Shown: positions 21,767-35,559 of the stretch, in pieces | Layout: each line of letters opens with the position of its first letter | Numbering within the stretch: the stretch's first letter is position 1 | Virus record (IMG/VR): IMGVR_UViG_3300021178_000094 | Span: 1-36,350 of that record | Origin: a virus | Direction: 5' to 3' (one strand) | Length of the DNA stretch: 36,350 nucleotides | Position numbers and translations under genes: made by a program | The notes under the pieces: model-generated | The model's input: only the letters and a program-made list of their open reading frames with translations | The model's database searches: none | What the model was told of the DNA's origin: nothing

Positions 21767-23282
21767 TTACAGATTCGACGGTCTTGCCAAAGTGTCTGAA
21801 AATGCACCACTTCTTGGCCTTGAGGTCGCCGTTTGGAAACCGGTCACGAAATAAAAGGCTTGCGCCGTCGCGACCCCACCATCGTTCCCATACAGCGGGA
21901 ATACGGTGATGCCGTCCACATCAAACAGAGCGCAGGGCTTTGATTCTACGCGAAACCAGTACTTCATGCAGATCAAGTCGAGACGTGCAGGAAGGGCATG
22001 GATGTTGGTGATGAGCTCACGCCCAGCCAACGTCTTGATGCGCTTCTTCTTCATGTAATCCATGCGCTCGTCGCCGCCCTTTTGACCTTCCTGCATGGTG
22101 TACGCAGTCACGCCAGAGCCGGTAGTGAAGCCGCCGGCAGAGGTAGTAACCATGCCGAGCAATTCCCATGAGGTCACTTGGTCTACGTTGCAGTGCGCGA
22201 TGATTTCGTCAAGGTCTTCAGTTTCAACGCCGGTCGCGCGTTGCATGTAGCTTTCAAGTGTGGCAATGATCTGCGGAGTCAATGGCCCCGAAGATCCATT
22301 TAGGTAAGGAGTGGTCAAGATTCCTGGATAGCTTGCTCGCGGAACGCTAAACCAATTCCCCGTATTCGAGGAGAAATTGATTGCGGGAATGCCGTTGAGC
22401 GAAGTGTTTGCGGAGCCTGAGGAACCGTTAACCAGAAGCAGATCGCCAGCCGTAGTGCCTGGCGGGAAGGTCCCGATCAGGTAGAGGATGTTGTTCACTG
22501 AATCCACGGTGAGGACGGTGATAGGGCCGCGAAGTGTTCCACCCAAAGATGACCACACCTGATAGGTATTCTGGGATTGGAAGTTGTTGGCGTTTGAAAC
22601 AGTGAGCTGCCCTGCTGTAGCTGCGCCGCTGGTTGCGACGGTGCCGAGAGTCCCAGAACCATCCGAAGAGGCTACAAGCCCTTCAAGGTTAGTGCGGAAT
22701 TGCCGCAGGTTCAACTTGAACGAATCTTTGAAAACATCGACTACGGACTTTTCTTTCGAGTCCGTCTCCCACTCGGCTTCCTTGGTGATTTGAACGGCCT
22801 GGTTGAAGTAGACAGGGGTGGTGACGCCATTGTCGTACTTCTCGCCCGCCCCCGGTCCCATCGAAGAGCCGTCAGGGGTGAACTGATTGAACAGCGATCC
22901 TGGGTAGGGCAGGAAAGGAATACGCGCCAATCGACCGCCGACTTCAAGCAAGTCGGTGCGCACGGCAAGCCGCGTCAGGAACGTATCATCTTGTTGGAAT
23001 TGCTTCGTTGTTACTCTGCCCGAAGGCAGGAGCCAGTCATTTCTGCTGGCTTCATACGGTTATATTTTCCCGTATGCTCGGAACATTGCATCAGCACCTC
23101 ATAAATGCCGTCTCTTCGCTTGTTCTCTCAGCCCGCTTTCGCTTGGCCCTCGTTGGCATTTCAGCGTTCGAGTCAATCAGAAGAGATTTTACTACCCCCA
23201 ATTCTCAAAAAGGGTAGACGGAGTCGCGAACTTTCTCAAGTTCGACGCCGATTGCAGCTGCCGCATTTAGGGGCGGAGCCAT
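21767..23282 (-). CDS. Major capsid protein, two exons: join(23282..23211, 23002..21767) after removal of an intron
   Basis: Exon 1 starts at ATG 23282 behind GGAGG (23294-23290) and encodes 24 residues, MAPPLNAAAAIGVELEKV..., then RDSVYP. The frame then hits TGA at once. Exon 2 begins QFQQDDTFLTRLAVRTDLLE at 23002 and is open to 21767. Removing 23210-23003 joins the two in frame to give 435 residues. The joined N-terminus, L-E-K-V-R-D-S-V-x-x-x-F-x-x-D-D-T-F, is the N-arm pattern I know from a phage capsid family, followed by GxxxARIPF...FNQFTPDGSSMGPG. Later come an SYPGILTTPYLNGSSGPLTP segment and the spine-helix region around TGVETEDLDEIIAHCNV. It lies after the scaffold gene with its own promoter-like element and terminator. 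An exon-2-only product would have to start at GTG 22963 without an SD and lack the N-arm, so splicing is favoured. Confidence 0.85.
23003..23210 (-). ncRNA. Group I self-splicing intron candidate inside the capsid gene (208 nt, no endonuclease ORF)
   Basis: 5' splice site: exon CUACCCU (23217-23211) pairs with GGGGUAG (23198-23192), putting the last exon U opposite a G, the group I rule. 3' splice site: the intron ends in G (23003), and exon 2 CAAUUC (23002-22997) pairs perfectly with GAAUUG (23204-23199), which abuts the P1 guide; this is P10. Further helices drawn by hand: P3 AAAUGCC/GGCAUUU (core GACGGCAUU); P4-P5 GGCC-AA-GC-GAAA-GC-G-GGCU with an unpaired AA like J4/5; P7 GAACA/UGUUC; then hairpins CAUACGG/CCGUAUG, GCCAG/CUGGC and CUGCC-UUCG-GGCAG in the P9 region. 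Order P1-P3-P4-P5-P7-P3'-P8-P7'-P9-P10 fits. P6 and P8 are weak and the subgroup is not assigned. Confidence 0.85.
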
Positions 23283-23343
23283 ATGTATGCCTCCAAAAGA
23301 AATGAATTTGCTTCATCTCCTCTGTCTGGTAGGCATCAATGCG

Positions 23344-31301: not shown

Positions 31302-31489
31302 ATCGAGTTCAAGAAATCCTGCAGGCGTGACCGTTTTTGTCGCTCCCAATCACAAGAATAACAGCGTTCGAAGAGCATGTCGTATTTGCTCGGATTTTTT
31401 TCTTGGCCCTCACCGCAACGTGGACACCACTTCATCAAGAATTGGCCGGTAGCCCGGTTGAGCACGAGTTCCATTGGCGTAGTCAGCAT
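31286..31489 (-). CDS. Small zinc-ribbon protein downstream of terminase
   Basis: Starts at ATG 31489 (or 31492; ATGATG overlaps the terminase stop), with GGAGG placed best for the second ATG. About 67 residues: a helical start and QFLMKWCPRCGEGQEKNPSK, then CYSCDWERQKR, so C-x-x-C...C-x-x-C in a zinc-ribbon spacing. Basic C-terminus. Coupled to the large terminase gene by overlap. Role unknown; nucleic acid or terminase binding would fit. Confidence 0.55.
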   Translation of the reverse strand: MLTTPMELVLNRATGQFLMKWCPRCGEGQEKNPSKYDMLFERCYSCDWERQKRSRLQDFLNSIWRTN

Positions 31490-33075
31490 CATCGCCTCCG
31501 AGGTCGTTTACCCAAGTAGAATACGCCTGAATTTGTTTCCCGCTCTTTTTTATTTAGCTCCAAATGTTTTATGTAGCGATCCGCCCCTTCTATTGGGACG
31601 CCCTTCAGTGCCTCTGCTAAACGTACCTGATACGGTTTGTCATGAGGCTTCCCAATCCGCCCGTAAAGCGCGTGACCTGCCCCGTCAATCATGTCTAGAC
31701 CTGGAAACTGTGCAATTTTCTCTCGTCCTAATTCCGTGCCTTCTTCCCGTGGCGCCAGGGGAATGTTCTGGATCAGTCGATGGCAGGAGCGCGCAATTTG
31801 CAATGCTGGCATATCCACAGCGTGGCCATCTGAAGTCTCGCCACAGTTTACTTTATTCTTCAGCAGCTGATAGAAAAGTTGCTCTCGCCCAACTTTGTCC
31901 GTGCCCGCATTCACCGGGAATGGCAAGCCTGCAGCCTTGAGCTTGCTTCCCATTCGCAATGCGATCGTGTTCGCGTCCGTCTTTTGATGGAAGGCGTCGT
32001 GAGAATAATAGAAGTGCTCGAATTTCGGCATCTTGCCATCTGAATCCATGCTGTGATAAATGATCGACTCGGCCAAGGTCTCTGGCGGCTCGTGTTGCGT
32101 CACGTATTCTCGGTAGATTCGCACAATGCCGAAGTCATCCATGTAACACCAATAGCACGTAGCCCAATGCTCAAAGCCCCAGTCTCCACCCATCCACCGC
32201 TTATGCCAAGGTTTGATTTCGACCGCTTCGTCTTCGTAAACATTTGAGTTCGGGTCCCAAGCGCCGGAGAAGTAGCCACCAGCCACGCCCCACTCCCCGT
32301 ACATCAATGCGCGCTGTTCGGCCAGCGGGTAGTTCGTTAGACTCTTCAGCCATGCCGTATCAGCAACTGCAATCGGATTGTCAAGATAAGTGAACGGGAA
32401 GTACTCGTAATCGCTGGGATTGTATTCGCGGCGCTGCGTTTCATCCATCTCTTCATAGGGAACTTTGTCAACGAAAATAGCCTTGCACCACCCAGCTCCG
32501 GGACCGATTGGATTTCCTGCCCCGCCCTTCGTGGCGAAAGGACTCACAGGACAACGATTCCACGCTGAAGTCGCCGTCCACTGCTTAAATGTAAATTCGC
32601 AAATTTCGTCGTAGTCGATCTTCAGCCACTGACCTTGCCAGCCATAAGCATCGTGCTCGTACTGCATCGAACCGAAATTCGTTTCTGATCCGTTGTGCCA
32701 AGTGACGATTTTCTTTGTCTCGTGGTAATTGCGATAAACTTCACGCGGGAATTTCTCGCGAAATCGCGTCACCACTGTGTCGTCCAACTTTGGGTTGGTT
32801 CGGCGCAAAATCAGCGTATGGACTTGCTTCGCTTCTTCTGGATCAGTGAAGGAGTAGCACTCCATCATGTGATCCATCAGCATTCCCAGGGTTTTCCCAC
32901 CATAAGCGGCACCGCCCGTAAGCCTGTGCTTCGTGGGGCTGCGATGGTAGGCTAGGAGCTTTGGGTAGGGCTTGTAGAGAAGAGTGGGCTTGCCATCTTT
33001 GCCGGCATAGTAAAGTTCATCTTGAACGTCTTGGGCAAAACGTTCGTAGCCAGCTTGACCGACCGAAGCAGTCAT
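31489..33075 (-). CDS. terL: Terminase large subunit
   Basis: 528 residues. ATG 33075 overlaps the upstream gene's stop. ATPase: Walker A-type GGAAYGGKT at residues 54-62, Walker B IDYDE at 153-157 with the catalytic Glu157. RNase-H-like nuclease: first Asp in GGDWG (residue 298), a second candidate in YYSHD (360), and a C-terminal MIDGAGHALYG. It powers DNA packaging through the portal and cuts the concatemer. Small-terminase candidate and sigma-like factor lie upstream, zinc-ribbon gene downstream. Length is normal for the family. Confidence 0.93.
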   Translation of the reverse strand: MTASVGQAGYERFAQDVQDELYYAGKDGKPTLLYKPYPKLLAYHRSPTKHRLTGGAAYGGKTLGMLMDHMMECYSFTDPEEAKQVHTLILRRTNPKLDDTVVTRFREKFPREVYRNYHETKKIVTWHNGSETNFGSMQYEHDAYGWQGQWLKIDYDEICEFTFKQWTATSAWNRCPVSPFATKGGAGNPIGPGAGWCKAIFVDKVPYEEMDETQRREYNPSDYEYFPFTYLDNPIAVADTAWLKSLTNYPLAEQRALMYGEWGVAGGYFSGAWDPNSNVYEDEAVEIKPWHKRWMGGDWGFEHWATCYWCYMDDFGIVRIYREYVTQHEPPETLAESIIYHSMDSDGKMPKFEHFYYSHDAFHQKTDANTIALRMGSKLKAAGLPFPVNAGTDKVGREQLFYQLLKNKVNCGETSDGHAVDMPALQIARSCHRLIQNIPLAPREEGTELGREKIAQFPGLDMIDGAGHALYGRIGKPHDKPYQVRLAEALKGVPIEGADRYIKHLELNKKERETNSGVFYLGKRPRRR

Positions 33076-34905: not shown

Positions 34906-35559
34906 TTAGAGCGTTACCTCAGAGAAGCTAGAAGCCGCTCTCTGCTCCAACGATTCGTCTGCCGATCCATTCTGCGATCTGCGGGACGACGGCGTTGCCG
35001 AGGGCTTTAATTCTGTCCATCCTTCCGGGTATCCCATGAACGTCTCCGCGCCAACGGGATGCACCGCAACGTTCCAATCCAGCCATCTCAGTTCCGATGG
35101 CAAATCCAAGCCCCTGGCCGAAGATTCGCGCATCCGCGCCGTCCGCGCCGTCCGCGCCCCGAAGCGATAATCCCGAGCGCACAACGTTGGCAATAGTTTC
35201 TTTATCGCCGTCGCCAGTCCGTCGCCGCTGTTCTTGCTCGCGCCCTTCCGATTGTAATTGCCGTGAACGGTCAGGGTAGGCAACAATGAAAACTCGGTCG
35301 CGCTCATGCTCGGCACCGAAGGCGTAAGCTGGTAAGCAATCCCATTCCGCGTCATACCCGCTCTCGGCCAAGTCCCGCAGAACGCTGCCCATCCCTCTAG
35401 AAAGCAGCGCTGCCACGTTCTCCACGACTGCGTAGTCGGGTCGTACCACGCGAATGGTTCGTATCTCTTCCCTCCACAAACCAGAACGCTCTCCTCCCAG
35501 CCCCGCGCCCTCGCCGGCAAAGGAAACGTCGGTAGTAATATACTTGGCAAAATGAGCAC
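34906..35559 (-). CDS. Overprinted open frame of the 'WPRxGMTRNG...MGYPxGWT' phage protein family
   Basis: 217 residues from GTG 35559 (a TAA lies two codons before). The sequence has the hallmarks of a phage protein family usually found with Dcm-type methylases: SWRTWQRCFLEGWAAFCGTW, then PRAGMTRNGIAYQL, LLPTLTVHGNYNRKGASKNS, GDGLATA, and MGYPEGWTEL plus PSATPSSRRS. It occupies the same DNA as the broken methyltransferase in a second frame; for example VENVAALL corresponds to RTWQRCF and ALGNAVVPQ to PSATPSSRRS. No stop over 217 codons and family-like motifs throughout argue it is coding. Function unknown. Family recognition is from memory. Confidence 0.55.
   Translation of the reverse strand: MLILPSILLPTFPLPARARGWEESVLVCGGKRYEPFAWYDPTTQSWRTWQRCFLEGWAAFCGTWPRAGMTRNGIAYQLTPSVPSMSATEFSLLPTLTVHGNYNRKGASKNSGDGLATAIKKLLPTLCARDYRFGARTARTARMRESSARGLDLPSELRWLDWNVAVHPVGAETFMGYPEGWTELKPSATPSSRRSQNGSADESLEQRAASSFSEVTL
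34928..35530 (-). pseudogene. DNA cytosine-C5 methyltransferase remnant lacking the catalytic N-terminus
   Basis: From DVSFAGEGAGLGGERSGLW on, the frame reads as a C5 methyltransferase: VVRPDYAVVENVAALLSRGM (ENV, motif VI), LRDLAESGYDAEWDCLPA, GAEHERDRVFIVA (motif VIII), then a variable region, then RMDRIKALGNAVVPQIAEW (motif X). The part before is missing: no motif I and no P-C-Q with the catalytic Cys. The frame instead runs upstream only to the TAG of the small protein ending at 35603. Thus it cannot methylate DNA. The frame itself has no internal stop. It fully overlaps the other frame at 34906-35559. Confidence 0.7.

What the first reader, a model, noticed from the sequence alone, without database searches (positions are those of the whole stretch)
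23003..23210. Minimal group I intron splitting the major capsid gene
Sequence: the capsid gene starts behind a perfect SD but stops after 25 codons, and the conserved D-D-T-F part resumes about 200 nt later in an open frame. A 208-nt segment can be removed so that (i) the frame is restored, (ii) the last exon-1 base is a U facing G in a 7-bp P1, (iii) the intron ends in G, and (iv) exon 2 CAAUUC pairs perfectly with the GAAUUG abutting the P1 guide (P10). P3, P4-P5 with a GAAA loop and free AA, P7 and three P9-region hairpins can be drawn. Known: group I introns occur in phage genes, usually larger and often with a homing endonuclease. An endonuclease-free ~200-nt intron in a capsid gene, placed in the N-arm, would be near the lower size limit and makes capsid output depend on splicing.
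Basis: partly seen in the sequence, partly recalled or inferred. Interest (0 to 1): 0.93.

Follow-up and report, generated by a model that had tools for sequence, protein, structure and literature searches.

The report
Compact self-splicing intron in phage capsid gene
An uncultured phage carries a 208-base group I intron (a piece of RNA that should cut itself out) inside its putative major capsid gene, and it belongs to a large family of similar compact introns in phage structural genes that the standard RNA database model largely fails to detect.

Summary
The finding holds. On the minus strand, 23210-23003 is a 208-nt insertion. It sits exactly between codons that are adjacent in the two nearest capsid relatives found (89% and 73% identical), both of which lack it. 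It begins UUU UGA and is not a multiple of three, so it must leave the mRNA for the gene to work. Exon 1 still evolves as protein (9 synonymous vs 1 nonsynonymous codon differences). Rfam's group I model gives no hit, but dozens of IMG/VR phage contigs carry homologues. An alignment of 43 supports a group I core with the P3/P7 pseudoknot: 97.8% of cells paired, 35 of 43 pairs with two-sided changes. A covariance model built without the window finds it at 147.6 bits (E 1e-32), and also finds the RT-PCR-proven mycobacteriophage introns of LittleE (capsid) and BAKA (tail). P1 with U·G, P10 and the terminal G are present. Introns in phage capsid genes are known, so this is a new member of a known kind. 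The wider surprise is the family: abundant in uncultured phages' capsid and portal genes, often several per gene, mostly missed by RF00028. Splicing is inferred, not observed.

The parts
23290..23294 (-). Shine-Dalgarno GGAGG of the capsid gene
   Evidence: sequence
23211..23282 (-). exon 1, MAPPLNAAAAIGVELEKVRDSVYP
   Evidence: vs L002 9 synonymous and 1 nonsynonymous codon differences over 20 codons
23003..23210 (-). 208-nt group I intron without an open reading frame of its own
   Evidence: absent from L002 and L003 at this exact site; CM hit 23193-23017, 147.6 bits, E 1.1e-32
23211..23217 (-). P1 exon strand CUACCCU, ends in the splice-site U
   Evidence: sequence; P1 recurs in 48 of 72 relatives vs 6.0 expected
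23192..23198 (-). internal guide GGGGUAG, pairs with CUACCCU (terminal U·G)
   Evidence: sequence
23199..23204 (-). P10 guide GAAUUG, pairs with exon-2 CAAUUC 23002-22997
   Evidence: sequence
23180..23186 (-). P3 5' strand UCUCUUC
   Evidence: 6 of 7 pairs with two-sided changes, 100% paired
23111..23117 (-). P3 3' strand GAAGAGA
23149..23172 (-). P4 (CUCG/CGAG) enclosing J4/5, a 2-bp P5 with GAAA loop (23165-23156), J5/4
   Evidence: L5 is GRRA throughout the aligned set, though the search pattern itself required it
23130..23148 (-).
   Evidence: 7 of 7 pairs with two-sided changes
23121..23127 (-). P7 5' strand G-a-GAACA with bulged A and the G of the guanosine-binding G-C pair
   Evidence: 4 of 6 pairs with two-sided changes, 100% paired
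23080..23085 (-). P7 3' strand UGUUCC
23092..23110 (-). P8 CGGCAUUU-AUG-AGGUGCUG
   Evidence: 4 of 4 aligned pairs with two-sided changes
23086..23091 (-). J8/7 AUGCAA
   Evidence: GCAA invariant in the 43-sequence alignment, though GCAA was part of the filter used to choose the sequences
23053..23076 (-). P9 hairpin CAUACGG/CCGUAUG
   Evidence: 6 of 7 pairs with two-sided changes
23031..23051 (-). P9.1 hairpin AGCCAG-CAGAAAUGA-CUGGCU
   Evidence: 6 of 6 pairs with two-sided changes
23016..23029 (-). P9.2 hairpin CUGCC-UUCG-GGCAG
   Evidence: fold; not tested by covariation
23003..23003 (-). terminal G of the intron (omega-G)
   Evidence: sequence; boundary set by relatives, frame and P10
21767..23002 (-). 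exon 2, QFQQDDTF... to stop, 411 aa, putative major capsid protein
   Evidence: phrog_14242 major head protein: window exon 2 E 2.8e-5, best of three homologues 9.4e-7

Best explanation
A compact group I self-splicing intron interrupts the putative major capsid gene after codon 24 of exon 1. Inferred mechanism: the transcript pairs the last seven exon-1 bases with the intron's guide (P1, terminal U·G). A guanosine bound in P7 attacks after that U. The freed U then attacks after the terminal G 23003 while P10 holds exon 2, joining ...UAC CCU to CAA UUC and restoring a 435-codon frame. Unspliced mRNA yields only a 25-residue peptide. The intron encodes no endonuclease, so it is either immobile now or mobile only with help from elsewhere. 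It belongs to a family common in uncultured phages' structural genes, other members of which carry endonucleases. Shown by sequence: insertion, boundaries, structure, homology to proven introns. Inferred: splicing in this phage and its efficiency.
For: Empty sites in two relatives, L002 and L003. Insert of 208 nt (3n+1) with an immediate in-frame TGA. Exon 1 under protein-level constraint. Covariation in 43 sequences including the P3/P7 pseudoknot: 97.8% paired, 35/43 pairs with two-sided change, score 0.655 vs 0.202 shuffled and at most 0.123 slid. CM built without the window: 147.6 bits, E 1.1e-32, sole hit. U·G-ended P1 in 48/72 relatives vs mean 6.0 and maximum 12 in 200 permutations. The same CM finds the RT-PCR-verified BAKA and LittleE introns at 51.2 and 44.3 bits (PMC3706429). 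Other family members flank capsid and portal exons, and Endo VII/HNH/GIY-YIG genes occur in or next to them.
Against: RF00028 does not hit the window at E up to 10. The fold energy of the region is only mildly better than shuffled (z -1.9). No RNA data exist for this phage. The capsid assignment of exon 2 rests on a weak profile match; the structure prediction failed (pLDDT 28). Sequences for the covariation set were chosen by conserved motifs, which inflates conservation in P5, J8/7 and P7' (not in P3, P6, P8, P9, P9.1).
Confidence: 0.95

Rival explanations
1. No intron: the capsid gene starts at GTG 22963 and the upstream ATG frame is a leader peptide or chance frame.
For: A 398-aa frame opens at GTG 22963.
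Against: Both relatives begin upstream and encode the exon-1 peptide joined to QFQQDDTF, which lies upstream of that GTG and is invariant. Exon 1 and the start of exon 2 differ from L002 almost only at third codon positions.
Confidence: 0.02
2. Translational bypassing (ribosome hopping), as in T4 gene 60, rather than RNA splicing.
For: The insert starts with a near-immediate stop and the flanking frames join cleanly.
Against: No matching take-off and landing codons (CCU/CAA). The insert has a covarying P3/P7 pseudoknot core, P1 and P10, and homologues proven to splice.
Confidence: 0.01
3. A dead or non-splicing insertion: a mutant genome, or an assembly chimera, with a broken capsid gene.
For: Single metagenomic contig; no read-level data.
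Against: All core pairs, P1, P10 and the terminal G are intact, exon 1 shows constraint, and the boundary exactly matches group I rules.
Confidence: 0.02

Closest known systems
Mycobacteriophage LittleE major capsid intron and BAKA minor tail intron (Cluster J; PMC3706429)
   Same: Same covariance model detects them full length (44.3 and 51.2 bits). Exon 1 ends in U, intron ends in G, virion structural genes; splicing verified by RT-PCR in that paper. BAKA (265 nt) has no endonuclease.
   Different: LittleE is 819 bp with an endonuclease frame. BAKA has a longer P5 and P8 and a different gene. The window intron is shorter (208 nt) with a 2-bp P5.
Rfam RF00028 Intron_gpI (group I catalytic intron)
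   Same: P1 with U·G, P3/P7 pseudoknot, P4-P6, P7 with bulged A, P8, P9, P10, terminal G.
   Different: The model does not reach the window at E up to 10, nor the five family members tested, though it finds other introns on some of those contigs. The same model is reported to miss archaeal IA3/IB4 introns (PMC6125680).
IC3 tRNA introns such as Azoarcus tRNA-Ile (from memory, not tested)
   Same: Similar size (about 205 nt), similar P7 with bulged A, no endonuclease.
   Different: Sits in a tRNA gene; longer P5 and a P2, neither of which is seen here.

Membership tests
Group I intron | Insertion in a gene, exactly absent in relatives | tested here: met
   L002 and L003 empty sites
Group I intron | P1 with exon-terminal U paired to G of the guide | tested here: met
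   CUACCCU/GGGGUAG; 48/72 relatives vs 6.0 by chance
Group I intron | P3/P7 pseudoknot with P4-P6 and P8 | tested here: met
   covariation
Group I intron | P7 guanosine site (bulged A followed by G-C) | tested here: met
   G-a-GAACA/UGUUCC; that G-C pair is invariant in 43 sequences
Group I intron | Terminal G and P10 with the 3' exon | tested here: met
   G 23003; GAAUUG/CAAUUC
Rfam RF00028 model | Scores above the Rfam gathering cut-off | tested here: not met
   no hit. This is a limit of the model rather than a defining feature of group I introns: RF00028 also misses known subtypes (PMC6125680) and scores the proven BAKA and LittleE introns below its cut-off
Group I intron | Guanosine-dependent self-splicing | not testable with these tools
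   needs RNA work
Named subgroup (IA-IE) | Best match among the 14 subtype models | not testable with these tools
   GISSD subtype alignments not available here
Mobile (homing) intron | Intron-encoded endonuclease | tested here: not met
   208 nt with no endonuclease frame; endonuclease genes occur in or next to other family members

The most novel reading that the evidence does not exclude
The window intron belongs to an uncatalogued, abundant subgroup of compact group I introns, with a vestigial 2-bp P5 capped by a GRRA loop. This subgroup has spread through capsid and portal genes of uncultured phages, often as several introns per gene separated by very short exons, and has stayed unseen because the standard Rfam model misses it and almost no isolate carries it.
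Probability: 0.4. Interest if true: 0.72.

Novelty: new member of a known kind. Interest (0 to 1): 0.6.

Why it matters
The most abundant protein of a virion appears to depend on removal of a 208-nt ribozyme, which implies very efficient splicing. The family behind it shows that phage capsid and portal genes are intron targets more often than isolate genomes suggest; reviews stress nucleotide- and DNA-metabolism genes (PMC12350094). Gene callers truncate such capsids, so viral catalogues probably hold many wrong capsid N-termini, and a covariance model for this family would help correct that.

Tried and rejected
RF00028 searches of the window, gathering and relaxed: nothing. The single-sequence fold is ambiguous. 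P3 as AAAUGCC/GGCAUUU: not supported by relatives. Pattern GAGAACAAGCGAAGAGAC: one chance hit in L004. blastn of the window intron against isolate phages: only chance-level matches; of two relatives: none. tblastn of the capsid against isolate phages: none. AlphaFold of exon 2: unusable. Capsid profile against PDB: none. Automatic 3' splice-site calling across the family was unreliable in multi-intron genes, because the frame filter fails on very short exons.

Full report
The window is an IMG/VR virus record of 36,350 bases. On its minus strand a gene starts at ATG 23282 behind GGAGG, and its frame ends at a TGA just inside the proposed intron. Downstream, an open frame runs from CAA 23002 to the stop ending at 21767, 411 codons. 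Exon 2 and its two homologues match only one PHROG, a major head protein: window E 2.8e-5, best of the three 9.4e-7. The genome also has a terminase match at 31489-33075. The capsid label is therefore likely but rests on a weak profile match. AlphaFold gave an unusable model and no PDB sequence matched.

Empty-site test. A viral-contig search for the capsid found two relatives, L002 (89% identical) and L003 (about 73%). Both have a contiguous 5' end: L002 MAQPALNAAASIGVELEKVRDSVYP-QFQQDDTF, L003 ...NAAASIGVELEAVRDAVWP-QFQQDDTF. The window carries the same peptide, MAPPLNAAAAIGVELEKVRDSVYP, then 208 nt, then QFQQDDTF. Between window and L002, 20 exon-1 codons show 9 synonymous and 1 nonsynonymous differences, with 10 of 11 changes at third positions. 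Exon 1 is therefore still selected as protein, although the insert breaks the frame. No family intron was found anywhere on the two intron-less relatives' records.

What the insert is. Rfam gave nothing. A pattern joining the suspected P7 strands found two IMG/VR loci, L015 and L028, whose P3, P4, P6, P8 and P9 differ in sequence but pair. L015's intron holds an HNH-like frame by inspection. Of 130 motif places, 91 also had the J8/7-P7' motif in range, and 61 of these remained after removing near-duplicates.

Covariation. In 43 aligned sequences the structure listed under parts, with the P3/P7 pseudoknot, has 97.8% of cells paired, 35 of 43 pairs with changes on both sides, and a covariation score of 0.655, against 0.202 when shuffled and at most 0.123 when slid. 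P7 varies with compensation at four of six pairs; the pair just after the bulged A, which would bind the guanosine cofactor, is G-C in all 43. The motif used for selection fixed parts of P5, J8/7 and P7', so the fair evidence comes from P3, P6, P8, P9, P9.1 and the 5' strand of P7, which were not selected on. A covariance model from 42 relatives without the window finds the window once, at 147.6 bits, E 1.1e-32. The alternative P3 AAAUGCC/GGCAUUU behaves like random pairing. BAKA's longer P5 at the same place in the model alignment supports that naming.

Splice-site rules. A U·G-ended P1 of adjusted score 6 or more exists in 48 of 72 distinct members. Pairing one member's guide with another's 5' flank gives 6.0 on average and 12 at most in 200 permutations. 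So the guides track their own exons, as splicing requires. The window's P1 is 7 bp and its P10 6 bp.

Link to experiment. The same model finds the introns of mycobacteriophages BAKA (minor tail gene, 51.2 bits) and LittleE (major capsid gene, 44.3 bits) over its full length. Splicing of both was shown by RT-PCR, and for LittleE also by protein sequencing (PMC3706429). RF00028 sees these only at 28.6 and 30.7 bits, below its cut-off of 50. It misses the five family members tested, although it finds other introns above its cut-off on three of the same contigs. Published work states that the Rfam model gave no significant archaeal hits while IA3 and IB4 models did (PMC6125680), so an Rfam miss does not argue against group I.

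Distribution. ORFs flanking the family introns include major head proteins and portal proteins; endonuclease VII, HNH, GIY-YIG and one LAGLIDADG gene also appear, as expected for homing introns. Only 2 of 84,980 GTDB species genomes carry the main motif, an Acidobacteria fen MAG and a Methanoregulaceae MAG. Two members had no blastn match among 50,697 isolate phages. In 36 loci the model finds 63 matches, many in tandem. In L112 two introns leave an exon of roughly 30 nt between them (read by eye).

Mechanism. Inferred from group I chemistry: guanosine attack after the P1 U, then exon ligation after G 23003 guided by P10. Unspliced mRNA gives a 25-residue peptide, so capsid output depends on splicing. 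No RNA evidence exists for this phage.

Verdict. The intron is real. It is a new member of a known kind, in a gene class where such introns are already proven. The family's abundance in structural genes of uncultured phages and its near-invisibility to the standard model are the more interesting result. Whether it is a new subgroup could not be tested, because the subtype models were not available here.

Noticed in passing
window 34906-35559 (-) and 34928-35479 (-): Two overlapping frames on the same strand both match DNA methyltransferase PHROGs (phrog_1008 E 5.7e-20; phrog_363 E 3.4e-34), which suggests dual-frame coding or a shifted or fused methylase.
   Followed up: partly
L112:11698-12092, L131:1221-1936, L049:13382-13824, L068:6986-7405: Tandem introns of the same family close together, in L112 with an exon of only about 30 nt between them; 63 model hits in 36 loci.
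   Followed up: partly
L033:680-898 and 1630-1869, L059:6550-6759, L049:5574-5769: Other group I introns detected by RF00028 on the same contigs, so these phages host at least two intron types.
   Followed up: no
L028, L034, L071, L096, L098, L116, L134 introns: A second version of the J3/4-P4 segment (UAUACGGCG/CGCC instead of UUGACUCG/CGAG), a natural sub-clade marker.
   Followed up: no
L150:7510-7683, L151:6254-6427: The only two GTDB genomes with the main motif are an Acidobacteria fen MAG and a Methanoregulaceae MAG; both contigs may be phage sequence binned with a host.
   Followed up: no
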